A DNA stretch of 64,000 nt from Pseudonocardia lacus. Lineage in GTDB: Bacteria; Actinomycetota; Actinomycetes; Mycobacteriales; Pseudonocardiaceae. The stretch is from assembly GCF_018531445.1 (NCBI RefSeq), contig NZ_JAHDTH010000020.1, positions 1 through 64,000 on the forward strand. The letters are read 5' to 3'. Positions within the stretch are counted from its first letter, which is position 1; every line of letters starts with the position of its first letter. A program made the translations under genes and the position numbers. Shown here piece after piece: positions 32,044 to 57,877 of this stretch. Under the pieces are notes generated by a model. It was not told the origin of the DNA and ran no database searches. It was given only the letters and a program-made list of their open reading frames with translations.

Positions 32044-32961
32044 ATGACCACCAGCCTGGAGAAGAAGAGCTCCGTCGAGCTCCCCGAGCACGTCTTCGAC
32101 GTGCCCGCGAACATCCCGCTGATGCACCAGGTCGTCACCGCCCAGCTGGCGGCGGCCCGCCAGGGCACGCACTCCACCAAGACCCGCGGTGACGTCCGCG
32201 GCGGTGGCAAGAAGCCCTACCGGCAGAAGGGCACCGGACGCGCCCGCCAGGGCTCGACCCGCGCGCCGCAGTTCACCGGTGGTGGCGTGGTCCACGGGCC
32301 GCAGCCCCGCGACTACTCGCAGAAGACCCCCAAGAAGATGAAGGCCGCCGCCCTCCGCGGCGCGCTGTCCGACCGCGCCCGCCACGGCCTCGTGCACGTG
32401 GTCCCGGGCCTGGTCGACGGCGAGACCCCGTCGACCAAGAAGGCGCGCACCGCCCTGGTCGACCTGGTCGGTGCCGACGTCCGCGCGCTGGTCGTGCTGG
32501 GTCGCGAGGACGTGGTCAGCTGGCTGAGCCTGCGCAACCTGCCCACCGTGCACCTCATCGAGCCGGGCCAGCTCAACACCTACGACGTGCTCGTCAACGA
32601 CGTCGTCGTGTTCACCGAGGACGCGCTGAACGACTTCCTCGAGGGCCCCATCGGGACCCCGGGCAAGCGGTCGGCGAAGGCCTCCGCCCGCGAGGGTGAG
32701 GTCGTCGAGGGCACGGAGACCAAGTACGGCTCGCAGAGCCACGCGCCGCTGGCCGACGGTTCGCAGCCGGAGGGCTTCCCGGTCAAGGGCAACGAGGACT
32801 CGATGCTCTACCACGTGCCGGGCAGCTCGTTCTACGCGCGCACCGTCGCCGAGGTGTGGTTCACCGACGCCGAGGCGGCCGAAGCGGCGGGGTTCTCCCT
32901 GCCGCCGTCCCAGCGCGCCGAGAAGAAGGCCGCTGACCAGATCACGGAGGAGGAGGAATGA
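32044..32961 (+). CDS. rplD: 50S ribosomal protein L4 with C-terminal sunset-like extension
   Basis: 305 residues; ordinary L4 is about 200-225. Residues 1-205 are a complete L4, including the extended loop [20 protein letters not shown] that lines the exit tunnel. After a linker (206-227) comes an added module at about 228-288, with core [22 protein letters not shown] and EAAEAAGF, then an acidic Lys/Glu tail. The same module ends L17 at 57641-57826; 31 of 41 core residues are identical. The module resembles what annotators call a sunset domain; its role is unknown. The reading frame is clean and the stop overlaps the rplW ATG (ATGA), so it is not an assembly artefact of readthrough. Confidence 0.95.
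32725..32904 (+). other. Sunset-like module fused to L4 (residues 228-287)
   Basis: The encoded segment runs from [12 protein letters not shown] through the 41-residue core (247-287). It is paralogous to the tail of L17. Synonymous differences between the two DNA copies show that they are not a very recent duplicate. Confidence 0.8.
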
Positions 32962-33257
32962 TCCCGGATCCGCGGGACATCCTGCTCGCGCCGGTGGTCT
33001 CGGAGAAGAGCTACGGCCTGCTCGAGGAGCGGCAGTACACCTTCGTCGTGCACCCCGACGCGAACAAGACCCAGATCAAGATCGCGGTCGAGAAGGTGTT
33101 CGGCGTCAAGGTGCTCAGCGTGAACACCCTGAACCGCCCCGGGAAGCGCAAGCGCTCCCGCACCGGCTACGGGAAGCGCAAGGACACCAAGCGCGCGATC
33201 GTCACGCTCTCCCAGGAGAGCCGGACGATCGACGTGTTCGGCGGCCGGGCGAGCTGA
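32958..33257 (+). CDS. rplW: 50S ribosomal protein L23
   Basis: 99 residues. Contains [23 protein letters not shown] and [17 protein letters not shown]23 lies at the tunnel exit and is the docking site for trigger factor and SRP. Its ATG overlaps the stop of the extended rplD by 4 nt, so coupling is preserved despite the L4 extension. Confidence 0.98.
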
Positions 33258-33268
33258 GGGGCTGACCA

Positions 33269-34102
33269 ATGGGCATCCGCAAGTACAAGCCGACGACGCC
33301 GGGCCGCCGCGGCTCCAGCGTCTCCGACTTCGCCGAGATCACCCGGTCCACGCCGGAGAAGTCGCTGATCCGCCCCCTGCACAGCAAGGGCGGTCGCAAC
33401 GTGCACGGGCGGGTCACCACCCGGCACCAGGGCGGTGGGCACAAGCGCGCCTACCGGCTGATCGACTTCCGGCGCAACGACAAGGACGGGGTGCCGGCCA
33501 AGGTCGCGCACATCGAGTACGACCCGAACCGCACCTCGCGGATCGCGCTGCTGCACTACGCCGACGGCGAGAAGCGCTACATCATCGCGCCGGCCCGGCT
33601 CAAGCAGGGCGACCGCGTCGAGTCGGGGCCGCGCGCGGACATCAAGGTGGGCAACAACCTGCCGCTGCGCAACATCCCGACCGGCACCGTGGTGCACGCG
33701 ATCGAGCTCCGCCCCGGTGGCGGCGCCAAGATCGCCCGCTCGGCGGGCGCCGGCGTCCAGCTGGTCGCCAAGGACGGGCCGTACGCGCAGCTGCGCATGC
33801 CGTCCGGCGAGATCCGCAACGTCGACGTGCGCTGCCGCGCCACCGTCGGCGAGGTCGGCAACGCCGAGCACTCCAACATCAACTGGGGCAAGGCGGGCCG
33901 CATGCGGTGGAAGGGCAAGCGCCCGACCGTCCGCGGTGTCGCCATGAACCCGGTCGACCACCCGCACGGTGGTGGTGAGGGCAAGACCTCCGGTGGTCGC
34001 CACCCGGTCAACCCCGCGGGCAAGCCAGAGGGCCGCACCCGCCGCACCAAGCCGTCCGACAAGTTGATCGTCCGCCGCCGGCGTACCGGCAAGAAGCGCT
34101 GA
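33269..34102 (+). CDS. rplB: 50S ribosomal protein L2
   Basis: 277 residues. Contains the conserved [22 protein letters not shown] stretch near the peptidyl transferase centre, with the key His in DHPHGGG. Normal length; 11 bp after rplW. Confidence 0.98.
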
Positions 34103-34117
34103 GCAGGGAGGTAACCA

Positions 34118-34399
34118 ATGCCGCGCAGCCTGAAGAAGGGCCCGTTCGTGGACGACCACCTGCTCAAGAAGGTGGACGCCCTCAACGAGTCGGGCAAGAA
34201 GACCGTCATCCGGACCTGGTCCCGTCGGTCCACCATCATCCCCGACATGATCGGCCACACGATCGCGGTGCACGACGGCCGCAAGCACGTGCCGGTCTTC
34301 GTGTCGGACTCGATGGTCGGCCACAAGCTGGGGGAGTTCGCCCCCACGCGGACCTTCCGGGGCCACATCAAGGACGACCGCAAGGCACGTAGGCGCTAG
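34118..34399 (+). CDS. rpsS: 30S ribosomal protein S19
   Basis: 93 residues, [19 protein letters not shown] to [13 protein letters not shown]19 pairs with S13 in the 30S head. GGGAGG precedes its ATG. Confidence 0.98.
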
Positions 34400-34428
34400 A
34401 GCGGGTCGGAAGAGCAGAGGAGAGATTC

Positions 34429-34847
34429 ATGGCTGTCACAGCCGAGAGCTCTGCCGCCGCGCCCGTTCGGGCGCGCGCGGTGGCGCGGTACGTGCGCATG
34501 TCGCCGACGAAGGTGCGGCGGGTACTGGCCCTGGTGAAGGGCCGCCCGCTGCAGGAGGCTCTGGACATCCTGCGGTTCTCGCCGCAGGCCGCCGCCGAGC
34601 CGGTCTACAAGGTCATCGCCAGTGCCGCGGCGAATGCCGAGAACAACCTCGACATCGACCGCGACACGCTGGTGGTGTCGATGGTGACCGCCGACGAGGG
34701 CCCGACGCTCAAGCGCATCCGGCCGCGCGCCCAGGGGCGCGCCTACCGGATCCGCAAGCGGACGAGCCACATCACCGCAGAGGTCGAGTCCGTCCCGGAG
34801 AAGTCCGGCGGCCGGGGCGCCCGCGGTGCGAAGGGGAGGGCCCGCTA

Positions 34848-34848
<1 letters not shown>
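34429..34848 (+). CDS. rplV: 50S ribosomal protein L22
   Basis: 139 residues. Contains [18 protein letters not shown] and the C-terminal beta-hairpin [25 protein letters not shown] that lines the exit tunnel and affects macrolide binding. A short Arg/Gly tail ends the protein. One-base overlap with rpsC (TAATG). Confidence 0.98.
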
Positions 34849-35684
<836 letters not shown>

Positions 35685-35687
35685 GCC

Positions 35688-36107
35688 GTGTTCATCCCGC
35701 GCAAGGTCAAGCACCGCAAGCAGCACCGGCCGCACCGCACCGGTGCGTCCACCGGCGGCACGCGCGTCACCTTCGGCGAGTTCGGCATCCAGGCGCTGGA
35801 GCCGGCCTACGTGACGAACCGGCAGATCGAGTCCGCCCGTATCGCCATCAACCGGCACATCCGCCGCGGTGGCAAGGTCTGGATCAACGTCTTCCCGGAC
35901 CGCCCGCTGACCAAGAAGCCGGCCGAGACCCGCATGGGGTCCGGCAAGGGTTCGCCCGAGAAGTGGATCGCGAACGTGAAGCCGGGTCGGGTGCTGTTCG
36001 AGATGAGCTACCCGAACGAGCAGACCGCCCGCGAGGCGCTGCGCCGGGCGATCCACAAGCTGCCCATGAAGTGCCGGATCGTGACCCGTGAGGGTGGTGA
36101 CATCTGA
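35688..36107 (+). CDS. rplP: 50S ribosomal protein L16
   Basis: 139 residues from GTG 35688, 3 bp after rpsC. Starts [19 protein letters not shown] and contains [21 protein letters not shown] and [21 protein letters not shown]16 sits beside the A-site tRNA elbow and the 5S RNA. One-base overlap with rpmC (TGATG). Confidence 0.98.
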
Positions 36108-36346
36108 TGGCCACGACGACCGCGGCCGAGCTGCGCGAGCTCACCGACGAGGAGCTCACGCTCCGGGTCCGGGAGGCCAAGGAGGAGCTGTTCAACCTCC
36201 GCTTCCAGATGGCGACCGGGCAGCTGGACAACAACCGGCGGCTGCGTACCGTCCGGCACGACATCGCGCGGATCTACACGATCATGCGCGAGCGCGAGCT
36301 GGGCCTCTCGGCCGCCCCCGACGACAACGACGAGGGTGCGGCATGA
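36107..36346 (+). CDS. rpmC: 50S ribosomal protein L29
   Basis: 79 residues: two long helices with [23 protein letters not shown]-type signature (here [15 protein letters not shown]) and [15 protein letters not shown]29 is near the tunnel exit beside L23. Overlaps rpsQ by 4 nt. Confidence 0.97.
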
Positions 36347-36609
36347 GTGAGAACGCGACCCGCGGGGAGCGGAAGGTCCGCGAGGGCTACGTCGTGTCCG
36401 ACAAGATGGACAAGACGATCGTGGTCACACTCGAGGACCGCGTGAAGCACCCGCTGTACGGCAAGGTCATCCGCCGGACGAGCAAGGTCAAGGCGCACGA
36501 CGAGGCCAACACGGCCGGCGTCGGCGACCGCGTCCGGCTGATGGAGACCCGCCCGCTGTCGGCCAGCAAGCGCTGGCGGCTGGTGGAGATCCTGGAGAAG
36601 GCGAAGTGA
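36343..36609 (+). CDS. rpsQ: 30S ribosomal protein S17
   Basis: 88 residues. OB-fold with [20 protein letters not shown] and [20 protein letters not shown]. The ATG overlaps the rpmC stop (ATGA) and its own stop overlaps the rplN GTG. Confidence 0.98.
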
Positions 36610-36974
36610 TCCAGCAGGAGTCGCGGCTGCGCGTCGCCGACAACACCGGTGCCAAGGAGATCCTGTGCATCCGGGTGCTGGGCGGTTCGGCGCGTCGGTA
36701 CGCGGGCATCGGCGACACCATCGTCGCCACCGTGAAGGACGCCATCCCGGCTGCCGGGGTGAAGCGCGGTGACGTGGTCAAGGCCGTCATCGTGCGCACG
36801 GTCAAGGAGCGGCGCCGTCCCGACGGCAGCTACATCCGGTTCGACGAGAACGCCGCTGTGCTGATCAAGGACAACGGTGAGCCGCGGGGTACCCGCATCT
36901 TCGGCCCGGTCGGTCGCGAACTCCGCGACCGCCGGTTCATGAAGATCATCTCGCTGGCCCCGGAGGTGCTCTGA
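36606..36974 (+). CDS. rplN: 50S ribosomal protein L14
   Basis: 122 residues from GTG 36606. Signature: [20 protein letters not shown] and [19 protein letters not shown]14 lies at the subunit interface and binds release/silencing factors. First gene of the spc segment. Confidence 0.98.
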
Positions 36975-36975
36975 C

Positions 36976-37290
36976 ATGAAGATCAAGAAGGGCGACACCG
37001 TGCAGGTGATCGCCGGCAAGGACAAGGGCGCGAAGGGCAAGGTCATCCACGCCTACCCCGACCGCGACCGGGTCCTGGTCGAGGGCGTGAACCGGATCAA
37101 GAAGCACACCCGGGTCAGCCAGAACCAGCGCGGCGCGCAGTCCGGCGGCATCGTCACGCAGGAGGCCGCGATCCACGTCTCCAACGTGATGCTGGTCGAC
37201 GGCGACGGCAAGCCGACCCGCGTCGGCAAGAAGGTCGGCGAGGACGGCAAGCGCGTGCGGGTCTCCAAGCGTTCCGGGAAGGAGATCTGA
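36976..37290 (+). CDS. rplX: 50S ribosomal protein L24
   Basis: 104 residues, KOW motif [23 protein letters not shown] at the start, then [16 protein letters not shown]. An assembly initiator near the tunnel exit. Follows rplN by 1 bp. Confidence 0.98.
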
Positions 37291-37292
37291 GC

Positions 37293-37856
37293 ATGACCAC
37301 CACGGAGAAGGTGGCGCCGCGCCTCAAGCAGCGCTACCGCGACGAGATCGCGGGTGAGCTGCGCGAGCAGTTCAAGTACGCGAACGTCATGCAGATCCCG
37401 GGCGTCACCAAGGTCGTCGTCAACATGGGTGTCGGCGACGCCGCCCGCGACGCCAAGCTCATCGACGGCGCCGTGCGCGACCTGGCCACCATCACCGGCC
37501 AGAAGCCGCAGGTCCGCCGGGCCACCAAGTCCATCGCGCAGTTCAAGCTGCGCGAGGGCATGCCGATCGGCGCGAAGGTCACCCTGCGCAACGACCGGAT
37601 GTGGGAGTTCCTCGACCGGCTCCTGACCATCGCCCTGCCCCGCATCCGCGACTTCCGCGGCCTGTCGCCGAACCAGTTCGACGGCCGGGGCAACTACACG
37701 TTCGGCCTCAACGAGCAGTCCATGTTCCACGAGATCGACCCGGACACCATCGACCGTCCGCGCGGCATGGACATCACGGTCGTCACCACCGCCACGACCG
37801 ACGAGGAGGGCCGGGCTCTGCTGCGCAAGCTCGGCTTCCCGTTCAGGGAGGCGTGA
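37293..37856 (+). CDS. rplE: 50S ribosomal protein L5
   Basis: 187 residues. Contains [24 protein letters not shown] and [20 protein letters not shown]5 binds 5S rRNA in the central protuberance. 2 bp after rplX. Confidence 0.98.
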
Positions 37857-37859
37857 GTA

Positions 37860-38045
37860 ATGGCCAAGAAGGCTCTGATCATCAAGGCCGCGGCCAAGCC
37901 GAAGTTCAAGGTCCGCGGCTACACCCGGTGCCAGAAGTGCGGCCGCCCGCGCGCCGTGCTGCGCAAGTTCGGCCTGTGCCGGATCTGCGTCCGCGAGATG
38001 GCGCACGCGGGCGAGCTGCCCGGCGTCAGCAAGAGCAGCTGGTAG
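37860..38045 (+). CDS. rpsN: 30S ribosomal protein S14, zinc-binding (type Z)
   Basis: 61 residues with the CxxC...CxxC zinc ribbon (CQKCGRP and CRICVRE, residues 24-43). This is the short zinc form, in contrast to the cysteine-free S18 at 3483. GGAGGC precedes ATG 37860. The 70 bp to rpsH contain no further gene. Confidence 0.98.
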
Positions 38046-38115
38046 CTCTCACCAGCACGCCCTCAATCGCCGAAGGCCCCTCCGGGGAACCACGGCGGGA
38101 AAGCAGTGACGTCAC

Positions 38116-38514
38116 ATGACGATGACCGATCCCATCGCAGACATGCTCACGCGTCTGCGCAACGCCAACTCGGCGTACCACGACCAGGTGGTCATGCCGC
38201 ATTCCAAGCTCAAGGTCGCGATCGCTGAGATCCTGCAGCGCGAGGGCTACATCGCGGGCCACCGCACCGAGGACGCCGAGGTCGGCAAGTCCCTGGTCAT
38301 CGAGCTCAAGTACGGGCGCAACCGCGAGCGCAGCATCGCCGGTCTGAAGCGGATCTCGAAGCCGGGCCTGCGGGTCTACGCGAAGTCCACCAGCCTGCCC
38401 CGGGTCCTCGGCGGCCTCGGCATCGCGATCATCTCGACGTCGGGCGGCCTGCAGACCGAGCGCCAGGCGTACAAGAACGGCGTGGGCGGGGAAGTCCTCG
38501 CCTACGTCTGGTGA
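38116..38514 (+). CDS. rpsH: 30S ribosomal protein S8
   Basis: 132 residues. Signature [20 protein letters not shown] and the C-terminal [32 protein letters not shown]8 binds central 16S rRNA and represses the spc operon in E. coli. Two nearby ATGs (38116, 38122) are possible starts. Confidence 0.98.
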
Positions 38515-38525
38515 GGGGTTAAAAC

Positions 38526-39065
38526 ATGTCCCGCATCGGGAAGCTGCCCATCACCGTGCCGTCCGGGGTCGACGTGGCCATCGACGGCCGCACGGTGACC
38601 ATCAAGGGACCCAAGGGCACCCTTTCGCACACCGTGATCGAGCCGATCACCGTGGAGCGCGACGACGCCGGCGCCGTCCTGGTCAAGCGACCGGACGACG
38701 AGCGCAAGACGAAGGCCTACCACGGCCTGTCGCGCACGCTGCTCAACAACCTCGTCGTCGGCGTCACCGCCGGCTACGAGAAGAAGCTGGAGATCCACGG
38801 GGTCGGCTACCGCGTGGCGCTGAAGGGCTCCTCGCTGGAGTTCGCGCTCGGGTTCAGCCACCCGGTCGTGATCGAGGCGCCGGAGGGCATCACCTTCACG
38901 GTCGAGACCCCGACCCGGTTCTCGGTCTCCGGCATCGACAAGCAGTTGGTCGGCGAGGTCGCCGCCAACATCCGCAAGCTGCGCAAGCCCGACCCCTACA
39001 AGGGCAAGGGCGTGCGGTACGCCGGCGAGGTCATCCGCCGCAAGGTCGGGAAGACGGGTAAGTGA
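38526..39065 (+). CDS. rplF: 50S ribosomal protein L6
   Basis: 179 residues, [20 protein letters not shown] to the conserved [25 protein letters not shown] end. L6 lies near the sarcin-ricin loop. Normal length; stop 2 bp before the rplR ATG. Confidence 0.98.
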
Positions 39066-39067
39066 TC

Positions 39068-39481
39068 ATGGCAGACACCACTTCTTCGATCTCGAACGCG
39101 GCCCGCAAGCGGCAGGCCTCCCAGGTCGGGCGCAAGCGCCGGGCCTCGGTCAGCCGCCGCCACGCGCGGCTGCGCAAGAAGGTCGTCGGCTCCGCGGCCC
39201 GCCCGCGGCTGGCGGTCAAGCGCAGCTCGCGCCACATCGTGGTCCAGCTCATCGACGACACCCTCGGCACGACGCTGGCCGCGGCCTCCAGCCTGGAGGC
39301 CGACGTCGCGGCGGTCGACGGCGACAAGAAGGCCCGCGCGGCCAAGGTCGGCGAACTGATCGCCGCCCGCGCCCGCGAGGCGGGCGTCACCGCGGTCGTG
39401 TTCGACCGCGGCGGCAACGACTACCACGGGCGGATCGCGGCGCTGGCCGACGCCGCCCGTGAGGGCGGCCTGGAGTTCTGA
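39068..39481 (+). CDS. rplR: 50S ribosomal protein L18
   Basis: 137 residues from ATG 39068. Contains [20 protein letters not shown] and [27 protein letters not shown], as expected for L18, the 5S rRNA-binding protein. Its TGA overlaps an ATG that starts a 15-codon mini-ORF leading to rpsE. Confidence 0.97.
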
Positions 39482-39528
39482 TGAGCGGCCGCATGTTCCA
39501 GATCAAGCACAGTGAAGGGATCGTCTGA
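39481..39528 (+). other. 15-codon mini-ORF bridging rplR and rpsE
   Basis: ATG 39481 overlaps the rplR stop by one base. The frame reads [15 protein letters not shown] and its TGA overlaps the rpsE ATG by one base (TGATG at both ends). It may be a translational coupling device carrying ribosomes across the 46-nt gap, or chance. The rpsE ribosome binding site (GAAGGGA) lies inside it. Confidence 0.4.
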
Positions 39529-40157
39529 TGCCGGGACGTACACGGCGTGACGGCGGGGGCCCGGGTGGCGGCGACAACCGCGACCGCCGGGACCGCCGGG
39601 ACGGAGGCCGTGGCGGGGCGGCCCAGGACAAGACCCCGTACATCGAGCGGCTGGTCACGATCAACCGCGTGGCCAAGGTCGTCAAGGGCGGTCGGCGCTT
39701 CAGCTTCACCGCCCTGATGATCGTGGGCGACGGCGACGGCCTGGTCGGCGTCGGCTACGGCAAGGCCAAGGAGGTGCCCGCGGCGATCGCCAAGGGTGTG
39801 GAGGAGGCGAAGAAGAACTTCTTCCGCGTCCCCCGCATCGGCGGCACGATCGTCCACCGGGTGCAGGGCGAGGCCGCCGCCGGCGTGGTGCTGCTGCGCC
39901 CGGCGAGCCCCGGTACCGGTGTCATCGCCGGTGGTCCGGTGCGCGCGGTCCTGGAGTGCGCCGGCGTGCACGACGTGCTCTCCAAGAGCCTCGGCAGCGA
40001 CAACGCGATCAACATCGTGCAGGCGACCATCGCCGCGCTGAAGATGATCCAGCGCCCCGAGGAGGTGGCGGCCCGTCGCGGGCTGCCGCTGGAGGACGTC
40101 GCCCCGGCCTCGATGCTGCGCGCCCGTGCGGCCGCGGCGCAGGGGGCGCGTTCGTGA
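39528..40157 (+). CDS. rpsE: 30S ribosomal protein S5
   Basis: 209 residues. A Gly/Arg/Asp-rich N-terminal extension of about 38 residues precedes the S5 core ([44 protein letters not shown]). S5 takes part in decoding accuracy and mRNA entry. Spectinomycin-type loop residues look ordinary. Overlaps rpmD by one base. Confidence 0.98.
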
Positions 40158-40405
40158 TGGCCACCAAGACCAAGGGCGACGCGAACGACGCCACCGCGCA
40201 GTCCACGCCGGTCAGCGGCACCGTGCTGCGGGTCACCCAGCTGCGCAGCAGCATCGGGTGCAAGCAGAACCAGCGCCAGACGCTGCTCGCGCTGGGCCTG
40301 CGCAAGATCCGGCAGACCCGTGACTGGCCCGACACGCCGCAGGTCCGCGGCATGATCCACACCGTCCGGCACCTCGTGGCGGTGGAGGAGGTCGAGTCGA
40401 AGTGA
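40157..40405 (+). CDS. rpmD: 50S ribosomal protein L30
   Basis: 82 residues. The L30 core ([28 protein letters not shown], then [17 protein letters not shown]) is preceded by about 22 extra Thr/Ala/Lys-rich residues. It is flanked by overlapping rpsE and rplO (GTGA). Confidence 0.97.
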
Positions 40406-40884
40406 GCGAGAACGACGAGAAGGCGACCACCAAGGTCCGCCCGATCAAGATCCACCACCTGCGTCCGGCCCCCGGCGCGAAGACCGCCAAGACGCGGGTC
40501 GGTCGCGGTGAGGGCGGCAAGGGCGGCAAGACCGCCGGCCGCGGCACCAAGGGCACCAAGGCCCGCAAGACCGTGTCGGCCGCCTTCGAGGGCGGGCAGA
40601 TGCCGCTGCACATGCGGCTGCCCAAGCTCAAGGGCTTCAAGAACCGGTTCCGCGTCGAGTACCAGGTCGTCAACATCGGCGACCTGGCCCAGCTGTTCCC
40701 GTCCGGCGGTACCGTCGGACCGGACGAGCTGGTGGCCGCGGGTGCCGTCCGCCCGCGCAAGCCGGTCAAGGTCCTCGGCGACGGCGACCTCGACGGCATC
40801 GCGCTGACGGTGTCGGCGCACGCCTTCTCCGGCTCCGCCCGCGACAAGATCGCGGCGGCTGGCGGGACCACCACCGAGCTGTAG
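40402..40884 (+). CDS. rplO: 50S ribosomal protein L15
   Basis: 160 residues from GTG 40402. Contains [37 protein letters not shown]-type N-terminus and [20 protein letters not shown]. Last ribosomal gene of the spc segment; a hairpin follows. Confidence 0.98.
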
Positions 40885-40900
40885 TCGGGCCCGTTCGGTG

Positions 40901-40926
40901 CGGGCCGGCGCCATCGCGCCGGCCCG
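40901..40926 (+). terminator. Hairpin terminator between rplO and secY
   Basis: An 11-bp perfect stem, CGGGCCGGCGC with GCGCCGGCCCG, closes the tetraloop CATC. A -10-like TAGAGT at 40951-40956 just after it may start a separate secY-adk-map transcript. Confidence 0.75.
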
Positions 40927-41021
40927 TGCCGTGCGGGTCGCGCTACCGCGTAGAGTCGTTCGGGGCCGCAGCGTTGTGCCAACAGCGCTGGTGAAGCCCA
41001 TCAGTACAGGAGGATCACCGA

Positions 41022-42332
<1,311 letters not shown>

Positions 42333-42387
42333 CGTCAGGCGTCGGGGGTGGGAACGGTCGGGGTCGTGGAGTTCAGGAGGATCTGTG

Positions 42388-42936: not shown

Positions 42937-42946
42937 GGGACGAGTG

Positions 42947-46899: not shown

Positions 46900-46906
46900 C
46901 CCCCTC

Positions 46907-46971: not shown

Positions 46972-46975
46972 TCTG

Positions 46976-47705: not shown

Positions 47706-47709
47706 GCGC

Positions 47710-47774: not shown

Positions 47775-47780
47775 GGCGGG

Positions 47781-47975
47781 TCAGCAGCAGCGGGACTGGG
47801 GGTGCTCCTGGGCCCGGTCCATCCGCCGCTTCTCGAACTCGCGCCGGGTGATCGGCGGGGCGTCGGGGTGCTCGCGCGCGTGGCGGGCGAGGTAGCGGTC
47901 GTAGTCCGCCTCCCCGCTCACCTCGCGCAGGTACCAGAGCACTCCGGCCCCGGCCCGCCGCAGCGCCGCGATCAT
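47781..47975 (-). CDS. YbdD/YjiX family protein (DUF466)
   Basis: 64 residues: LWYLREVSGEADYDRYLARH, then PPITRREFEKRRMDRA and a C-terminal Cys pair. It matches the small YbdD/YjiX family that accompanies CstA-type transporters and is needed for pyruvate uptake by BtsT in E. coli. Its ATG overlaps the cstA stop by 4 nt-type overlap (ATGA), so the two are co-translated. Presumed accessory subunit. Confidence 0.92.
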   Translation of the reverse strand: MIAALRRAGAGVLWYLREVSGEADYDRYLARHAREHPDAPPITRREFEKRRMDRAQEHPQSRCC

Positions 47976-50164: not shown

Positions 50165-50412
50165 GATGGTGCTCCCCGTCCGGTTCCGAGTAACGGTCGG
50201 TCGGCTGGTCTGGTCGACATCGGCTCTCCTCGCTCCCGCCCACGGCGCCTTCGCCGCGGTCCCCGTACCCCGGTCCCCGGTGGTCACCGGGTTCGCACCG
50301 GGGGGTTTACCTGCGTCACGGATCAAGCGCATCCGCTGACCGAGTGCTCTCGGTCCACGCATGGTGCGCAACCGGCGCCGCCGGGTCCAGGGTGTTGCGG
50401 TGGAGCGACCGG

Positions 50413-51690
50413 TCAGGGCGCGGCGGGCGCGTCGAGCGGGTGGGCGATCTCGTCGCGCGGCAGCCGCCAGGCGACCAGGGCGATCACCGCCAGGAACACC
50501 GGGACGACCCCGATGACCAGGAGGACGAGCGGGATGCCCACGACCTCGCCGACCGGCCCGGCGATCGCCATCGACACCGGCATGAAGGCCAGCGAGACGA
50601 AGAAGTCGAGGCTGGAGACCCGCCCGAGCAGGCGGGTCGGTACCCGCCGCTGCAGCAGGGTGCCCCAGATGACCGTGGCCGCGGCGTCGGTGATCCCGAC
50701 GACGGCGCTCGCCGCGACCATCAGCCACAGCTGGTCGGTGGCGCCGATGACGGCCAGCGGCAGCACGCCCGCGCCCCAGCACAGCAGCATGACCGTCAGG
50801 TAGCGCCGGGGCAGGCGCATGGTCGAGACCAGGATCGAGCCGACCGCCCCGCCGATCCCGTAGCCCGCGACGACGACGGCGAACTCGGTCGGCCCGCCAC
50901 CGGCCTGATCGCGCACCGCGAACGGCAGCAGCACCTCGATCGGACCGATGATCAGCAGGACGTAGACGGTGGCGAAGGCGAGGGTGGCGAACAGCCAGCC
51001 GGTGCGCACCAGGTAGGCGAAGCCCTCCGTGAGGTCGCGCAGCGGGGAGGAACCGCCGCCGGGCTCGACCGCCACCGGAGGCATCCGCAGCAGGGCGAGC
51101 ATCGCCAGCAGGTAGCTGCCGGCGGCGACGAGCACGGCGACGGCCGGCAGCAGCGCCCCGACCACGAGGCCGGCCAGGGCGGGGCCGGCCGCCCGCTGCG
51201 CGATCGGGCGCAGCGCCCCCTCCACGCCGTTGGCGGCCAACAGGTCGTCGGCCGGGAGCAGTCGGGGCAGCAGCGCCGAGTACGCGGGGTAGAAGAACGC
51301 GTCGGCGGCCCCGAGGACCAGCGAGATCGCCGCCAGCTGCCACAGCTGCAGCGCGCCGGTCAGCCCGAGCACGGCCACCGCGCCCGCGCCGACGGTCTTG
51401 ACCGCCTCGACGCCGATCATCAGCGCGCGCTTGGGCAGCCGGTCGGCGGCCACCCCGCCGATCAGGACGCTGCTGAGCAGCCCGACGCTGAACGCGGTGG
51501 CCACCGTGGACAGCTCGGTGGGGCCGCCGCCGAGCGCGATGACCTGGTAGACGACCGCGACCATCCACACCCCGCTGCCCAGCAGCGAGAGGGCCATCGA
51601 GGCCACGAGCAGCCGGTACCCCCGGCTGCGGAACGGGCGCAGCGGACGGGGGAGCGCGCGGACCGCGGTCGTGCCGTCGTCGGGCCTCAC
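50413..51690 (-). CDS. MFS transporter (EntS/MFS_3-like)
   Basis: 425 residues from GTG 51690 with twelve predicted helices. The cytoplasmic loop between helices 2 and 3 has GGVAADRLPKRALM, the MFS A-motif, and later DAFFYPAYSALLPRLLP and RRVPTRLLGRVSSLDFF are typical of the MFS_3 group of exporters. Substrate unknown; drug or siderophore export is common in this group. It lies 67 bp from the LLM gene on the same strand and 248 bp upstream of cstA. That gap shows no gene. Confidence 0.92.
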   Translation of the reverse strand: MRPDDGTTAVRALPRPLRPFRSRGYRLLVASMALSLLGSGVWMVAVVYQVIALGGGPTELSTVATAFSVGLLSSVLIGGVAADRLPKRALMIGVEAVKTVGAGAVAVLGLTGALQLWQLAAISLVLGAADAFFYPAYSALLPRLLPADDLLAANGVEGALRPIAQRAAGPALAGLVVGALLPAVAVLVAAGSYLLAMLALLRMPPVAVEPGGGSSPLRDLTEGFAYLVRTGWLFATLAFATVYVLLIIGPIEVLLPFAVRDQAGGGPTEFAVVVAGYGIGGAVGSILVSTMRLPRRYLTVMLLCWGAGVLPLAVIGATDQLWLMVAASAVVGITDAAATVIWGTLLQRRVPTRLLGRVSSLDFFVSLAFMPVSMAIAGPVGEVVGIPLVLLVIGVVPVFLAVIALVAWRLPRDEIAHPLDAPAAP

Positions 51691-51757
51691 CGCCGGACGG
51701 TAACCCGCGCGGGCGCGGTGGCGCGTCGGGTTTAGCCGGTCCCGGCGGACCGCCGGC

Positions 51758-52660
51758 TCACCGCCGGAACGCCGGGTCGGTGAGCGCCCGCACGGTCAGC
51801 CGCTGCTCGGCGGGCGTGCCCACCGGGGCGGCCAGGAACTCGGTGGCGCCGGCGTCGCGCAGCCGGTGCAGCTGCCGCAGGACGGCGTCCTCGTCGCCGA
51901 CGACGGCGACCCCGCCCGGGCCGTCGACGCCCTCGCGGTCGAGCACCGCGCGGTACTCGGGCACCTGCCCGGCCGGCGCGAACCGCTCGGCGATGCGGGC
52001 GCGCGCCGCGTCCGCATCGGCGGTGACGCAGACGGGCAGGCCGGCGACCACCCGCGGGGCGGGCCGGCCGGCGGCCGCGCGCGCCAGCCGCGGCACGACG
52101 TGCTCGTGCAGGGTCCGGGGCCCGGCCATCCAGGTGACGGCGCCGTCGGCGAGCTCCCCGGCCACCCGGAGCATGGCCGGCCCGAGCGCGGCGAGCAGGA
52201 CCGGTGGCGGGGTGGTGCCCGGTACGTCGACGGCCCCGACGGCGGTGAGCGTGGGGCCGTGGTGGTCGACGGCCTCGCCGCGCAGCAGCGGGCGCAGCAC
52301 GCCGAGGTACTCCCGCATGCGCAGGGCGGGCCGGTCGTGGGGCACGCCGTACATCGCCCCCAGCATCGCCCCGATGCCGGCGCCGACGCCCAGCCGCAGC
52401 CGGCCGCCGACCGCGGCCTGGGTGCTCAGTGCCTGCCCGGCGAGCACCAGCGGGTGGCGCTGCAGGACGGGCACCACGGCCGTGCCCAGGCCGACGCGGG
52501 GGACCCGCCCGGCGGTCGTGAGGGCGGTGAGCGCGTCCCACCCGAGTGCCTGGCTCACCCACACGGTGCCGAACAGGTCGGCCGCCTCGGTCACCTGCTC
52601 CACCAGGAGGTCGGCGGTGGTGGGTCCGCGCAGGTCGCCGACGGCTATTCCGATGTCCAC
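51758..52660 (-). CDS. LLM class (F420-dependent-type) oxidoreductase
   Basis: 300 residues from GTG 52660 with GGAG upstream; longer frames would cover the operator. TIM-barrel of the luciferase-like monooxygenase superfamily: DIGIAVGDLRG, FGTVWVSQALGWDALTAL, VGLGTAVVPVLQRHPLVLAGQA, GRLRLGVGAGIG. Actinobacterial members usually use coenzyme F420. Substrate unknown. Divergent from a TetR gene across an inverted repeat. Confidence 0.92.
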   Translation of the reverse strand: MDIGIAVGDLRGPTTADLLVEQVTEAADLFGTVWVSQALGWDALTALTTAGRVPRVGLGTAVVPVLQRHPLVLAGQALSTQAAVGGRLRLGVGAGIGAMLGAMYGVPHDRPALRMREYLGVLRPLLRGEAVDHHGPTLTAVGAVDVPGTTPPPVLLAALGPAMLRVAGELADGAVTWMAGPRTLHEHVVPRLARAAAGRPAPRVVAGLPVCVTADADAARARIAERFAPAGQVPEYRAVLDREGVDGPGGVAVVGDEDAVLRQLHRLRDAGATEFLAAPVGTPAEQRLTVRALTDPAFRR

Positions 52661-52673
52661 GCTGCTCCGTCCA

Positions 52674-52730
52674 TAAGTGGGGCGGTACCCCGTTTCGGTC
52701 GCCGTACGATACGGGGGGCAACCCCACTTA
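52674..52730. promoter_or_regulatory. Probable TetR operator, TAAGTGGGG inverted repeat
   Basis: TAAGTGGGG at 52674-52682 and its exact complement CCCCACTTA at 52722-52730 flank the divergent promoters; a -10-like TACGAT is at 52705-52710. Inner GGGTACC/GGGGGG words may add half-sites. Confidence 0.7.
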
Positions 52731-52746
52731 CGCAAAGGAGCACGTC

Positions 52747-53322
52747 GTGACCGGTCCCCGGGACGGACGCCCGCGGCGCGCGGACGCCCGGCGCAACCGT
52801 GAGCGCATCGTCGCCGTCGCCGCCGCCGTCGTCGCCGAGCAGGGGGCCGACGCGTCGCTGGAGGAGATCGCGCGGCGGGCCGGGGTGGGGTCGGCGACCC
52901 TGCACCGGCACTTCGCCGGCCGGCAGGAGCTCCTGCGCGCCGTGTTCGCCGGCCACGTCGACGCGCTGTGCGCGAGGGCCGAGGAGCTGGTGGGCGCCGC
53001 GGATCCCGGCGAGGCCCTGGTCGTCTGGCTGCGGGCGGTCCTGGCGCACGCCACGACCCACCGCGGCCTCGGCGCGGCCCTGCTGGCCGGCCTCGACGAC
53101 CCGACCCCGGTCGCCGCCTTCCACGGTCGCATCGTGGCGGCGGGAGACGCGCTGCTCGACCGCGCGCGGAGCGCGGGAGCGGTGCGCGACGGGATCCTGG
53201 TCACCGAGTTGCTGCAGCTGGCCAACGCCGTCTCGGCGGCGACCGAGGGTCGCCCCGGCGGCCCGCGCCGCGCCGAGCGGCTGCTCGACATCGCGCTCGA
53301 CGGCATCCGCCCCCGCGGCTGA
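52747..53322 (+). CDS. TetR family transcriptional regulator
   Basis: 191 residues from GTG 52747 after AAAGGAG. Helix-turn-helix at residues 35-67 (ASLEEIARRAGVGSATLHRHFAGRQELLRAVF). The C-terminal domain looks like the common actinobacterial SbtR/TetR_C type. It probably controls the LLM oxidoreductase through the inverted repeat. Downstream DUF1707 gene begins 50 bp later on the same strand. Confidence 0.92.
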   Translation: MTGPRDGRPRRADARRNRERIVAVAAAVVAEQGADASLEEIARRAGVGSATLHRHFAGRQELLRAVFAGHVDALCARAEELVGAADPGEALVVWLRAVLAHATTHRGLGAALLAGLDDPTPVAAFHGRIVAAGDALLDRARSAGAVRDGILVTELLQLANAVSAATEGRPGGPRRAERLLDIALDGIRPRG

Positions 53323-53372
53323 CGCCCCGGGCGCCGTCTCGGCCTGTGCGCTCCGGGCCGCGGTGGCGCATC

Positions 53373-53828
53373 ATGGTGAAGGTGGACGGCGAACCCGACG
53401 GAGCCGAGTGGCCCGTCGTGCGCCCGGAGGATCTGCGCGCCGGCGACGCCGACCGCGAGCGCGTGCTCGACAGGCTCCGCGCGGCGCACGTCGAGGGCCG
53501 GCTGGACGTCGAGGAGTTCGACGAGCGCATCCGGGCCACCCTGGCCGCCCGCACCTACGGCGAGCTCGCCGCGCTGACCTCCGACCTGCCGCCCGCCGCC
53601 GCCCCGCCCGCGGTCCCGGTAGCCATGTCGCCGGAGGACGACGCGGCCGGCGAGTTCCGCTCCGGGGTCGCCGCCTGGGCCGCCGCCAGCGTCACGACGA
53701 TGGCCATCTGGGCCATCAGCTGCGTCGCGTCCGGGCTGTTCATCTACCCGTGGTTCCTGTGGGTCGCCGGCCCGTGGGGCACCGTGCTGCTGGTGGCCTG
53801 GCTCGGGATGCGGCTGCAGGGGCGCTGA
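53373..53828 (+). CDS. DUF1707 domain protein with two membrane helices
   Basis: 151 residues. Residues 17-70 are a DUF1707 domain (LRAGDADRERVLDRLRAAHVEGRLDVEEFDERI, then ARTYGELAALTSDLP). It is followed by a Pro/Ala linker and two helices (about 98-121 and 124-146), the second pair resembling the 2TM (SHOCT-like) partner domain. Function unknown; actinobacteria have many. No obvious ribosome binding site, and GTG 53376 is an alternative start. Confidence 0.85.
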   Translation: MVKVDGEPDGAEWPVVRPEDLRAGDADRERVLDRLRAAHVEGRLDVEEFDERIRATLAARTYGELAALTSDLPPAAAPPAVPVAMSPEDDAAGEFRSGVAAWAAASVTTMAIWAISCVASGLFIYPWFLWVAGPWGTVLLVAWLGMRLQGR

Positions 53829-53873
53829 TCAGGACCCGGCGGCGGGCGCGCGGGCGAGCGACGTACACTGGTA

Positions 53874-53879
53874 TTTCGG
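53874..53879 (+). promoter_or_regulatory. -10-like element upstream of infA
   Basis: TACACT in GACGTACACTGG, 114 bp before infA. No good -35 is seen at the right distance. It is the likely start of the alpha operon. Confidence 0.4.
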
Positions 53880-53993
53880 CGCGTTCTGTGGCGCCGGTTC
53901 CGTCGTGCCTCCCGCAGGTCCCGGTCCCGGAGCTGCGATGCGCCTGACGTACGGAACCGAGAGTACGCACACCTGTCACGGAACGCGGAGGAC

Positions 53994-54215
53994 ATGGCCA
54001 AGAAGGACGGGGCGATCGAGGTCGAGGGCCGGGTCGTGGAGCCCTTGCCGAACGCGATGTTCCGCGTGGAACTGGAGAACGGACACCGGGTCCTCGCGCA
54101 CATCAGCGGCAAGATGCGTCAGCACTACATCCGGATCCTGCCCGAGGACCGGGTCGTGGTCGAGCTGTCGCCGTACGACCTGACCCGCGGCCGCATCGTC
54201 TACCGCTACAAGTGA
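53994..54215 (+). CDS. infA: Translation initiation factor IF-1
   Basis: 73 residues, single S1/OB fold: [25 protein letters not shown] and [30 protein letters not shown]. Binds the A site of the 30S subunit at initiation. First gene of the infA-rpmJ-rpsM-rpsK-rpsD-rpoA-rplQ group. Confidence 0.98.
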
Positions 54216-54247
54216 CGTAACCACCAGCGAAGAGAAGAGCGACGGAC

Positions 54248-54361
54248 GTGAAGGTCCAGCCGAGCGTCAAGAAGATCTGCGACAAGTGCCGGGTGATCCG
54301 CCGGCACGGTCGCGTGATGGTGATCTGCGAGAACCTGCGCCACAAGCAGCGCCAGGGCTGA
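54248..54361 (+). CDS. rpmJ: 50S ribosomal protein L36 (zinc-binding)
   Basis: 37 residues from GTG 54248: [13 protein letters not shown], then [14 protein letters not shown] and LRHKQRQG. The zinc ligands Cys11, Cys14, Cys27 and His32 are all present. It is easily missed because of its size. The 151 bp to rpsM have no gene I can support. Confidence 0.96.
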
Positions 54362-54512
54362 TCACCCGGACGCAGCGACACCAGAGGACCCCCGCGCACC
54401 AACCGGGCCACACGGGCCCGGTCGACCCCCGGAACCAGGCCGGGGCCCGGACAGCGGACCGGGACGGGCGTGGGGAAGACCTGGCACACCGAACAAGGAG
54501 AACACCGACCGC

Positions 54513-54893
54513 ATGGCACGTCTTGCCGGCGTAGACCTCCCCCGCGACAAGCGGATGGAGATCGCGCTCACCTACATCTTCGGGATCGGCCGCACCCGGT
54601 CCAAGGAGATCCTCGAGGCCACCGGGATCGACCGCGACCTGCGGTCGAAGGACCTGACCGACGAGGACCTCACCAAGCTCCGCGAGTACATCGAGTCGAA
54701 CCTGCGCGTCGAGGGCGACCTGCGCCGCGAGGTCCAGGCCGACATCCGTCGCAAGATCGAGATCGGCTGCTACCAGGGCATCCGCCACCGCCGCGGGCTG
54801 CCGGTGCGCGGCCAGCGGACCAAGACCAACGCCCGCGGCCGCAAGGGTCCCAAGAAGACCGTCGCCGGCAAGAAGAAGGCAGGTAAGAAGTAA
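54513..54893 (+). CDS. rpsM: 30S ribosomal protein S13
   Basis: 126 residues. Contains [31 protein letters not shown] and the basic tail [22 protein letters not shown]13 contacts the P-site tRNA and 50S bridge. One-base overlap with rpsK (TAATG). Confidence 0.98.
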
Positions 54894-55300
54894 TGCCGCC
54901 CCGCGGACGCACCGCGGCCGGGCCCAAGAAGGTCCGCCGCAGCGAGAAGAAGAACGTCGCGCACGGTCACGCGCACATCAAGAGCACCTTCAACAACACC
55001 ATCGTGTCGATCACCGACCCGACCGGTGCCGTCATCGCCTGGGCCTCGGCCGGGCACGTCGGGTTCAAGGGCTCGCGCAAGTCCACGCCGTTCGCCGCCC
55101 AGATGGCCGCGGAGAGCGCGGCCCGCAAGGCCGCCGAGCACGGCATGAAGAAGGTCGACGTGTTCGTGAAGGGGCCGGGCTCCGGTCGCGAGACCGCGAT
55201 CCGCTCGCTGCAGGCCGCCGGTCTCGAGGTCGGCACCATCTCGGACGTCACCCCGCAGCCGCACAACGGCTGCCGCCCGCCCAAGCGGCGCCGGGTCTAG
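54893..55300 (+). CDS. rpsK: 30S ribosomal protein S11
   Basis: 135 residues. Contains [38 protein letters not shown] and [14 protein letters not shown]11 forms the 30S platform near the E-site mRNA. Follows rpsM by overlap. Confidence 0.98.
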
Positions 55301-55320
55301 GGGAGAGGGAGTAACCAGAC

Positions 55321-55926
55321 ATGGCTCGTTACACCGGCCCCATGACCCGCAAGTCCCGCCGGCTGAAGGTCGACCTCGTCGGCGGCGACCAGGCGTTCGA
55401 GCGTCGCCCCTACCCGCCCGGCCAGCACGGCCGGATCCGGATCAAGGAGACCGAGTACCTCCTGCAGATGCAGGAGAAGCAGAAGGCCAAGTTCGCCTAC
55501 GGCGTGCTGGAGAAGCAGTTCTCCCGGTACTACGAGGAGGCGAACCGGCGCGCCGGCAAGACCGGTGACAACCTGCTGCAGATCCTCGAGTCGCGGCTCG
55601 ACAACGTCGTGTACCGGGCGGGCCTGGCCCGCACCCGGCGGATGGCCCGCCAGCTGGTGAACCACGGGCACTTCCTGGTCAACGGCCAGAAGGTGGACAT
55701 CCCCAGCTACCGGGTCTCGCGCTACGACATCATCGACGTCCGCGACAAGTCGCGGAACATGGACCCGTTCATCATCGCCAAGGAGCTCCAGGGCGACCGT
55801 CCGATCCCGGCGTGGCTGCAGGTCGTCCCGTCGACCCTGCGCATCCTGGTCCACCAGCTGCCCGAGCGTGCGCAGATCGACACGCAGGTCACCGAGCAGC
55901 TGATCGTCGAGCTCTACTCCAAGTAG
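55321..55926 (+). CDS. rpsD: 30S ribosomal protein S4
   Basis: 201 residues. Starts MARYTGPMTRKSRRLKVDLV and has the S4 RNA-binding domain (RLDNVVYRAGLARTRRMARQLVNHGHFLVNG). No zinc cysteines (the cysteine-free form, ordinary for actinobacteria). S4 nucleates 30S assembly and in E. coli represses the alpha operon. Confidence 0.97.
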   Translation: MARYTGPMTRKSRRLKVDLVGGDQAFERRPYPPGQHGRIRIKETEYLLQMQEKQKAKFAYGVLEKQFSRYYEEANRRAGKTGDNLLQILESRLDNVVYRAGLARTRRMARQLVNHGHFLVNGQKVDIPSYRVSRYDIIDVRDKSRNMDPFIIAKELQGDRPIPAWLQVVPSTLRILVHQLPERAQIDTQVTEQLIVELYSK

Positions 55927-55937
55927 TAGCGCTCCCA

Positions 55938-55966
55938 CCCCCGCCGCAGCAGGGATGCGGCGGGGG
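55938..55966 (+). terminator. Hairpin between rpsD and rpoA
   Basis: CCCCCGCCGCA and TGCGGCGGGGG are exact complements (11 bp) around a 7-nt loop, followed by a second small stem (GGCCGGCCCC...). It may partly terminate or mark processing; rpoA probably also depends on readthrough or its own promoter. Confidence 0.65.
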
Positions 55967-56042
55967 TCGGCCGGCCCCTCGGGGTCGGCCTTCCGCGGCA
56001 TCAAATAGCGGTTGCCGCGGCGCCTAAGGAGGGCACCACACC

Positions 56043-57104
56043 ATGCTGATCTCTCAGCGCCCCACCCTGACCGAGGAGCCGGTGGTCGACACCCGCTCCC
56101 GGTTCGTCATCGAGCCGCTCGAGCCGGGCTTCGGCTACACGCTGGGCAACTCGCTGCGCCGCACGCTGCTCTCGTCCATCCCCGGCGCGGCTGTCACCAG
56201 CATCCGCATCGACGGCGTCCTGCACGAGTTCACCACCGTGCCGGGCGTCAAGGAGGACGTCACCGACATCATCCTCAACCTCAAGGAGCTGGTCGTCAGC
56301 TCCGAGGAGGACGAGCCGGTGACCATGTACCTGCGCAAGCAGGGCCCCGGTGCGGTCACCGCGGGCGACATCGTGCCCCCGGCGGGCGTCACGGTGCACA
56401 ACCCCGACCTGCACATCGCCACCCTGAACGACAAGGGCCGCCTCGAGGTCGAGCTGGTCGTCGAGCGGGGCCGCGGCTACGTGCCGGCCATGCAGAACAA
56501 GGCCACCGGCGCCGAGATCGGCCGCATCCCGGTCGACTCGATCTACTCGCCGGTCATGAAGGTGACCTACAAGGTCGAGGCCACCCGCGTCGAGCAGCGC
56601 ACCGACTTCGACAAGCTGGTGCTGGACGTGGAGACCAAGCCGTCGCTCGCCCCGCGCGACGCGCTGGCCTCGGCCGGCAAGACCCTCGTCGAGCTCTTCG
56701 GGCTGGCCCGCGAGCTCAACGTGGACGCCGACGCGATCGAGATCGGGCCGTCGCCGCAGGAGGCCGACACCATCGCCGCCTTCGCGATGCCGATCGAGGA
56801 GCTGGACCTCACCGTGCGGTCCTACAACTGCCTCAAGCGCGAGGGCATCCACACCGTGGGCGAGCTGGTCGGGCGCAGCGAGGCCGACCTGCTCGACATC
56901 CGCAACTTCGGGGCCAAGTCCATCGACGAGGTCAAGATGAAGCTCGTCGGCCTGGGCCTGGCCCTCAAGGACAGCCCGCCCGGGTTCGACCCGTCCGCGG
57001 CCGCGGGCGAGTACGGCGTCGCCGACACCGCCGGCGCCGGCGGCTTCGAGCACGACCCGTTCCACGACGACGGCCAGGACTACGCAGAAACGGAGCAGTT
57101 GTAG
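56043..57104 (+). CDS. rpoA: DNA-directed RNA polymerase subunit alpha
   Basis: 353 residues. N-terminal domain ([34 protein letters not shown]) dimerises; the C-terminal domain ([48 protein letters not shown]) binds UP elements and regulators. Pro/Gly-rich acidic tail. GGAGG precedes the ATG; ends 2 bp before rplQ. Confidence 0.98.
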
Positions 57105-57106
57105 CC

Positions 57107-57877
57107 ATGCCTCAGCCCACCAAGGGGCCCCGCCTCGGCGGGTCTCCCGCGCACCAGCGGCTGATCCTGGCCAACCTGGCCACGTCGCTGTTCGAGCACC
57201 GCCGGATCACCACGACGGAGGCCAAGGCCCGCAGGCTGCGGCCCTACGCCGAGAAGCTGATCACCAAGGCCAAGCGCGGCGACCTGCACAACATCCGCGA
57301 GATCGCCAAGGTGATCCGCGACAAGGACGTCGTGCACGCACTGGTCACCGAGATCGGCCCGTTCTTCGCCGACCGGCAGGGTGGCTACACCCGGATCACC
57401 AAGACGCTGCCGCGCAAGGGCGACAACGCCCCCATGGCCGTGATCGAGCTGGTGTCGCAGAAGACCGTCACCGACGAGGCCGACCGGGCCCGCCGGGTCG
57501 CGTCCTCGCGCCAGTCGGAGTCCACGCCGAACCCGACCGCGCAGGTCCCGGCGACCGAGGAGCCGGCCGTCGCCGACGCCACCGGTCCCGTGGGCGAGAG
57601 CACCGAGGTCGAGGAGTCGGCCGCCACCGACACGGCGCCGTACGGCGAGGGCAGCCACGCCCCGCTGGACGACCCGCAGGAGGCGCCGGCCGGGTTCCCG
57701 ATCAAGGGCAACGCCGACTCGATGCTGTACCACGTCCCCGGTTCGTCCCACTACGGGCAGACCGTGGCCGAGGTGTGGTTCGCCTCGGAGGAGGCCGCCG
57801 AGGCCGCGGGCTTCGCCGCCCCGGCGTCGCAGAAGTCGGCCGAGGCCGAGGCCGCCGACGAGGGCCAGGAGCCCTGA
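57107..57877 (+). CDS. rplQ: 50S ribosomal protein L17 with C-terminal sunset-like extension
   Basis: 256 residues; ordinary L17 is about 120-130, or up to about 190 with actinobacterial tails. Residues 1-125 are a normal L17 ([28 protein letters not shown] to [10 protein letters not shown]). Then a Thr/Glu/Ala-rich linker (126-178) leads to a module at about 179-240: [45 protein letters not shown]. The same module ends L4. The end of the module reads over the expected start of truA. L17 lies at the base of the 50S near the tunnel exit. The function of the module is unknown. Confidence 0.95.
57641..57826 (+). other. Sunset-like module fused to L17 (residues 179-240)
   Basis: Paralogous to the L4 tail (32725-32904): 31 of 41 identical residues in the core from Ile199 to Pro239. 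The DNA copies differ at many third codon positions. Confidence 0.8.

What the first reader, a model, noticed from the sequence alone, without database searches (positions are those of the whole stretch)
32725..57826. Two ribosomal proteins, L4 and L17, share the same extra C-terminal module (sunset-like)
Seen: rplD codes for a 305-residue L4 and rplQ for a 256-residue L17. Both have a normal ribosomal core, a linker, then a module of about 60 residues. From Val247-Pro287 in L4 and Ile199-Pro239 in L17, 31 of 41 residues are identical by hand count ([29 protein letters not shown]). Known: L4 and L17 both lie toward the back and exit side of the 50S; I recall that annotators use the informal name sunset domain for this motif, for example in ArfC-type proteins, but I know of no ribosomal function. 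Inference: a mobile accessory domain was added to two ribosomal proteins and could dock a common partner (membrane, Sec channel, a chaperone or hibernation factor) at two points of the ribosome. Synonymous differences show an old duplication under selection.
Basis: partly seen in the sequence, partly recalled or inferred. Interest (0 to 1): 0.88.

Follow-up and report, generated by a model that had tools for sequence, protein, structure and literature searches.

The report
Mobile "sunset" tag on ribosomal proteins
Two ribosomal proteins of this soil bacterium carry the same small extra domain, which belongs to a domain that has been copied onto many parts of the gene-expression machinery and onto membrane proteins in actinobacteria, and which probably works as a flexible docking tag with a partner nobody has identified.

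Summary
rplD (305 aa) and rplQ (256 aa) end in the same ~60-residue module, with 31 of 41 residues identical. NCBIfam already catalogues both proteins as "50S_L4_sunset" and "50S_L17_sunset", over cut-off; my paper searches found no account of the domain. The wider picture goes beyond two proteins. In fetched genomes the module also ends uL22, uS3, bS16, uS2, bL20, NusA and, once, NuoC, and sits on many single-pass membrane proteins, about two thirds with charges that predict a cytoplasmic module. In one MAG a 265-bp block, 263/265 identical, lies in both rplV and nusA, so the module is copied as DNA. It is predicted to fold on its own after a disordered linker. In L17 and L4 its dN/dS is near that of the ribosomal core; the linker's is near 1. 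It descends from the Ada zinc-binding fold with the cysteines lost. Cutibacterium acnes uL4 carries it, without EM density. Best reading: a flexible docking tag linking ribosomes to a shared, unidentified partner. That function is inferred, not shown.

The parts
32044..32961 (+). rplD, ribosomal protein uL4 with sunset tail (305 aa)
   Evidence: Pfam PF00573 residues 11-197, 215.7 bits; NCBIfam NF051449 50S_L4_sunset 429.2 bits, cut-off 385
32635..32724 (+). uL4 linker between core and module (about residues 198-227)
   Evidence: between the Pfam core end and the module; pooled uL4 linker dN/dS 1.09 against 0.51 for the core
32725..32913 (+). sunset module of uL4, residues 228-290
   Evidence: NF051437 at residues 247-285, E 4.2e-21; matches Cutibacterium acnes uL4 8crx_e, E 2.1e-13
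57107..57877 (+). rplQ, ribosomal protein bL17 with sunset tail (256 aa)
   Evidence: Pfam PF01196 129.6 bits; NCBIfam NF051448 50S_L17_sunset 346 bits, cut-off 280
57455..57640 (+). bL17 linker (about residues 117-178)
   Evidence: AlphaFold2 pLDDT under 50 at residues 142-177 of the 257-residue model, which has one extra leading residue; pooled bL17 linker dN/dS 0.93
57641..57835 (+). sunset module of bL17, residues 179-243
   Evidence: NF051437 E 1.1e-22; module model mean pLDDT 83.7, pTM 0.70; pooled bL17 module dN/dS 0.51

Best explanation
The tail is a sunset module: a small folded domain of the Ada zinc-binding superfamily that has lost its cysteines. It hangs from the ribosome surface on a disordered linker. 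It works as a docking tag: one interaction surface, copied onto different ribosomal proteins in different lineages, onto NusA, and onto tails of membrane proteins (about two thirds with charges that predict a cytoplasmic tail), so that ribosomes, and in some Acidimicrobiia transcription complexes, can be held by a common partner. Which ribosomal protein carries it matters little, because the linker lets it reach. Shown: the shared module, the range of hosts, one copying event, low dN/dS. Predicted: the fold and the membrane topology. Inferred: that it binds a partner, and that the partner is shared between ribosomal and membrane hosts.
For: Of the Cys-free hosts, those resolved as soluble in the order and class samples are uL4, bL17 and bS16 (3 and 1 hosts unresolved); elsewhere uL22, uS3, uS2, bL20 and NusA. 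Of 100 membrane-type frames in the two samples, 69 have more Lys/Arg after than before the segment, 20 fewer, 11 equal. Tandem copies occur: four in one Herbihabitans membrane protein. Pooled dN/dS for module, core and linker: bL17 0.51, 0.44, 0.93; uL4 0.54, 0.51, 1.09. Models show a folded core, an unfolded linker and a folded module. C. acnes uL4 carries the module and its extension has no EM density, as expected of a flexible tether.
Against: No partner was identified. 21 of 30 genomes with a ribosomal sunset in the two samples have no membrane sunset protein at E <= 0.001, so a membrane role is not general. Presence is patchy: 35 of 246 class genomes have any sunset and 15 a ribosomal one. 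One soluble host is neither ribosomal nor NusA: NuoC, a subunit of complex I. Six complete frames with a Cys-free module have no assigned host and no predicted segment at my threshold (L129 second frame, L300, L302, L303, L309, L312; L309 has no Pfam family). In 20 of 100 membrane frames the charges would put the module outside. In uL22 (4 pairs only) the linker dN/dS is 0.30, not near 1.
Confidence: 0.5

Rival explanations
1. Tolerated decoration: a module that is copied by recombination between 3' ends of genes and is kept because solvent-exposed C-termini of abundant proteins tolerate it. It needs no function on the ribosome.
For: 263/265 bp identity between rplV and nusA tails of one MAG; patchy distribution and changing hosts; 17 host changes among ribosomal modules as the fewest on the module tree, though well-supported branches force far fewer.
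Against: In bL17 and uL4 the module's pooled dN/dS is close to the ribosomal core while the adjacent linker is near 1; 33 of the 79 named loci bear the name Pseudonocardia, so it is kept within a genus; assigned soluble hosts are not random genes.
Confidence: 0.2
2. Homotypic clustering: sunset modules bind each other, so ribosomes cluster with one another (polysomes, hibernation) or with membrane-anchored sunset arrays.
For: Tandem arrays of 2-4 modules; several decorated ribosomal proteins per genome, e.g. L4, L17 and S16 in two Nakamurella genomes, L4, L22 and S3 in one Ilumatobacter MAG.
Against: 28 of the 30 ribosomal-sunset genomes in the two samples have only one or two decorated ribosomal proteins, and 21 of 30 lack a membrane sunset; no self-association was tested.
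Confidence: 0.15
3. Nucleic-acid contact inherited from the Ada domain: the module touches RNA or DNA near the ribosome or RNA polymerase.
For: Relation to Ada; Cys-type relatives sit on predicted secreted nucleases.
Against: The window modules carry net charge -6 and -7 and have no cysteine.
Confidence: 0.08
4. A handle for turnover or quality control of ribosomes (protease or chaperone adaptor).
For: C-terminal, flexible, accessible position.
Against: Nothing specific was found for it; ribosomal proteins are abundant and long-lived (recalled).
Confidence: 0.05

Closest known systems
NCBIfam sunset families (NF051437, NF051448, NF051449, NF051450, NF051451, NF051433)
   Same: The window's L4 and L17 exceed the curated cut-offs of the L4 and L17 sunset variants. 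S2, L20 and ArfC variants are also modelled.
   Different: No sunset-variant model of their own kind appeared for the one uS3, uL22, bS16 and NusA protein each that I scanned or for NuoC. The descriptions shown give no function and no link to Ada.
Ada_Zn_binding (PF02805, N-terminal domain of Ada)
   Same: Profile alignment E 6.4e-6, score 29.9 against a best of 15.7 in 200 column shuffles; top Foldseek hit 1u8b N-Ada; two proteins found with the sunset model score as Ada_Zn_binding at E 8.5e-12 and 4.1e-13, the first of them below the sunset cut-off.
   Different: The window modules have no cysteine, so no Ada-type zinc site; the Foldseek E of 2.5 is not significant alone.
Cutibacterium acnes uL4 extension (8CRX; PMC10085706, passages read)
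   Same: Carries the sunset module.
   Different: The paper calls it a likely disordered extension; none of the 12 of 16 passages shown names a domain there.
ArfC-type membrane proteins (NCBIfam ArfC_sunset)
   Same: Single transmembrane segment plus C-terminal sunset; one such protein in this genome at C442.
   Different: Not ribosomal. The window genome's copy lies behind a photolyase-like frame (by eye); arfA was not searched for, and this copy was not itself scanned against NCBIfam.

Membership tests
NCBIfam 50S_L4_sunset (NF051449) | full-length score over 385 bits including the module | tested here: met
   429.2 bits, residues 11-284
NCBIfam 50S_L17_sunset (NF051448) | full-length score over 280 bits including the module | tested here: met
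   346 bits, residues 2-240 of the 257-residue frame
Ada_Zn_binding superfamily | homologous sequence | tested here: met
   profile score well above 200 shuffles, and bridging intermediates
Ada_Zn_binding superfamily | same fold | tested here: inconclusive
   N-Ada is the top Foldseek hit, E 2.5, probability 0.30, TM 0.49 by query
Ada_Zn_binding as a zinc site | four cysteine zinc ligands | tested here: not met
   no cysteine in the window modules; the Ada alignment has four invariant cysteines
Ada_Zn_binding Pfam family proper | score over the gathering cut-off | tested here: not met
   window proteins and modules give no PF02805 hit; a four-module protein reaches 23.1 bits, cut-off 23, with no single stretch passing
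ribosome tether or docking system | physical binding to a partner | not testable with these tools
   needs biochemistry

The most novel reading that the evidence does not exclude
Actinobacteria use one mobile Ada-fold docking tag as an address label: ribosomes (through any of seven proteins), NusA transcription complexes and membrane proteins that carry it are gathered by one shared receptor, giving a modular system for placing gene expression in the cell.
Probability: 0.25. Interest if true: 0.9.

Novelty: new variant of a known kind. Interest (0 to 1): 0.62.

Why it matters
Ribosomal proteins are among the most conserved proteins, and I know of few domains that move among them. A module copied between rplV and nusA, held under constraint on L17 and L4, and shared with membrane tails would give a handle on how bacteria position ribosomes or couple transcription, translation and membrane. 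It also means that ribosome structures from such species, C. acnes included, can miss a domain that is predicted to fold and that the chains contain. The window's own pair is a plain member of two catalogued NCBIfam families; the wider set of hosts and the Ada origin are what I rate as a new variant.

Tried and rejected
Membrane tether as the general function: rejected as general, because 21 of 30 genomes with a ribosomal sunset have no membrane sunset. Operon context of membrane sunset genes: frames resembling a prenyl synthase and 2-oxoacid:ferredoxin oxidoreductase subunits lie near several (by eye, not scanned); no functional lead. Phages: no match. Plasmids: one record, a Tsukamurella rplQ. 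PDB by profile: C. acnes L4 and one hit at E 0.44. Module tree: too few columns to date gains. Literature on ArfC: listings only, nothing on the domain. Ada plus thermonuclease: one listing, unrelated.

Caveats on counts. Host types were assigned by blastp to reference cores and by a hydropathy threshold; L165 was put into the secreted/Cys group by hand, and one Cys-type frame of L169 has no predicted segment. In the order sample, 4 of 89 positive genomes (G044, G051, G151, G155) gave no hit with my seed model and one more (G235) was unresolved. In the tree, loci 1, 60-64, 68-89, 269-298 and L324, L274, L272, L317 were dropped, the 14 secreted-type rows were left out, and identical modules were entered once, which removed the NusA copy of L245. 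One search lists 14 of 246 over the L4_sunset cut-off, but only 9 reach the module; the other 5 end before it. dN/dS pairs are pooled, not independent, and include fairly distant pairs (core synonymous difference 0.03-0.45).
Full report
The observation. rplD (32044-32961, 305 aa) and rplQ (57107-57877, 256 aa) each code a normal ribosomal core followed by a linker and the same module. Pfam recognises only the cores. NCBIfam recognises the whole proteins as its "50S ribosomal protein L4, sunset domain variant" and "L17, sunset domain variant", both over cut-off. So the window's pair is already catalogued. A full-text search for "sunset domain" gave one unrelated paper; searches on ribosomal protein extensions, NusA and domain fusions gave no account of the module that I saw (listings only).

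The genome. The genome of the window holds three sunset genes over the cut-off: L17, L4 and a single-pass membrane protein of ArfC type on another contig. Its L17 module is identical to that of Pseudonocardia humida over 44 core residues and 96% identical over 74.

Distribution. With the general sunset model, 89 of 249 genomes sampled from the order, 35 of 246 from the class and 29 of 296 from the phylum have a match at E <= 0.001; 87, 35 and 25 are over the curated cut-off. Of 119 genomes drawn from the class of the Acidimicrobiales MAG G473, 27 match, 25 over the cut-off. By gene, the order sample holds bL17 16, uL4 3, bS16 2, membrane tails 68, LGFP-membrane tails 27, secreted Cys type 6, unresolved 3; the class sample holds uL4 9, bL17 8, membrane 16, LGFP-membrane 12, secreted 4, unresolved 1. 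The two samples share 16 positive genomes. Of the 30 distinct genomes with a ribosomal sunset, 9 also have a membrane one. As a control, the sunset model rings in 1 of the 14 control genomes at E <= 0.001, Bacillus subtilis.

New hosts. NCBIfam models exist for L4, L17, L20, S2 and ArfC. I also find the module on bS16 in Nakamurella; on uL22 and uS3 in Acidimicrobiia, in one MAG on L4, L22 and S3 in one 7-kb stretch; on NusA in five genomes (L245, L305, L306, L307, L395; Pfam for L245, L305 and L395, the other two by blastp); on a bL20 below the NCBIfam cut-off; and on NuoC in one genome. uS2 was found once. None of the uS3, uL22, NusA and bS16 proteins scanned, one each, matched a sunset-variant model of its own kind.

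Membrane hosts. Of 100 membrane-type frames in the two samples, 69 have more Lys/Arg in the 15 residues after the hydrophobic segment nearest the module than before it, 20 have fewer and 11 equal. LGFP-repeat hosts mostly have a signal-like N-terminus, the repeats, a second segment and a basic stretch before the tail, which puts the module in the cytoplasm. A coiled-coil class (L095, L096, L104) has its basic residues before the segment and may be an exception. One Herbihabitans membrane protein has four modules in tandem. These topologies are predictions. Six complete frames have neither an assigned host nor a predicted segment at my threshold.

Copying. In one Acidimicrobiales MAG (CALEWY) a 265-bp block covering linker end and module is 263/265 identical between rplV and nusA, on separate contigs, and blastn found no other similarity between the two 8.2-kb loci. 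In the other 15 genomes compared, within-genome module pairs are 62-86% identical in DNA; the same host compared between genomes has medians of 80% (bL17), 79% (uL4), 73% (uL22) and 64% (NusA). On the module tree, host labels are strongly clustered (28 changes, shuffled mean 118), but only 23 of 238 inner branches are starred, and these force far fewer changes (2 for bL17, 2 for uL4, 3 for membrane). So the module has changed host more than once, and at least once recently. An assembly error in the MAG cannot be fully excluded.

Constraint and structure. Over pooled pairs, dN/dS for core, linker and module is 0.44, 0.93 and 0.51 in bL17 (2351 pairs of 73 sequences), 0.51, 1.09 and 0.54 in uL4 (191 pairs of 24), and 0.29, 0.30 and 0.11 in uL22 (4 pairs of 10); pairs are not independent. 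So the module is constrained in all three; the linker is free in bL17 and uL4 but not, on little data, in uL22. The isolated module is predicted at mean pLDDT 83.7, pTM 0.70, with three short strands and a helix, plus a C-terminal helical turn. Full-length L17 (pTM 0.49) gives a confident core, pLDDT under 50 at residues 142-177, and a module with block means of 73-90. In C. acnes uL4, which carries the module, the authors saw no density for the extension and called it likely disordered (PMC10085706, passages). A folded domain on a flexible string would look the same.

Origin. The module profile aligns with the Ada zinc-binding domain at E 6.4e-6; the score of 29.9 compares with a best of 15.7 in 200 column shuffles. 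The Cys-type relatives are closer on both sides (E 5.9e-7 to Ada; 1.4e-20 to sunset). Two proteins found with the sunset model, one of them below its cut-off, score as Ada_Zn_binding; that one is also a staphylococcal-nuclease homologue. The top fold match is N-Ada, not significant alone. The window modules have no cysteine.

Mechanism. A constrained folded domain on a mostly free linker, on whichever ribosomal protein exposes its C-terminus, on NusA, and on membrane tails, is what a docking tag would look like. Where L4, L17, L20, L22, S2, S3 and S16 lie on the ribosome is recalled, not computed. The partner is unknown. That the partner is at the membrane is suggested by the membrane hosts and by NuoC, and opposed by the genomes with ribosomal copies only. 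Confidence in docking is about one half; in one shared receptor, about one quarter.

Noticed in passing
L202, L239, L245, L373: In Acidimicrobiia and one bL20 host the linker before the module holds an EF-hand-like acidic stretch of the form DxDGDGExNAxD (L373: a variant), unusual for a cytosolic protein.
   Followed up: no
L301:2561-4786 (-): A Herbihabitans membrane protein carries four sunset modules in tandem; its N-terminal segment weakly matches ArfB_Rv0900 (E 6.9e-6), and an L17 tail in the same genome has two modules.
   Followed up: partly
L398:812-3448 (-): NuoC (complex I 30-kDa subunit) with an acidic linker and a sunset module before a further acidic tail, in a genome that also has bL20-sunset.
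   Followed up: partly
NZ_LR134464.1:210482-210595: A record filed as a Tsukamurella plasmid carries rplQ with sunset, which suggests a chromosome fragment or a replicon with ribosomal genes.
   Followed up: no
L329-L348, L353: Many Acidimicrobiia have a short protein with one apparent membrane segment (by eye) and a sunset relative that mostly has two cysteines; the Cys pair could be a metal site or a disulphide.
   Followed up: no
L388:1132-2007 (-): A protein with two Ada-like cysteine motifs (the second by eye) and a SecE match below cut-off; a possible intermediate between Ada and sunset.
   Followed up: no
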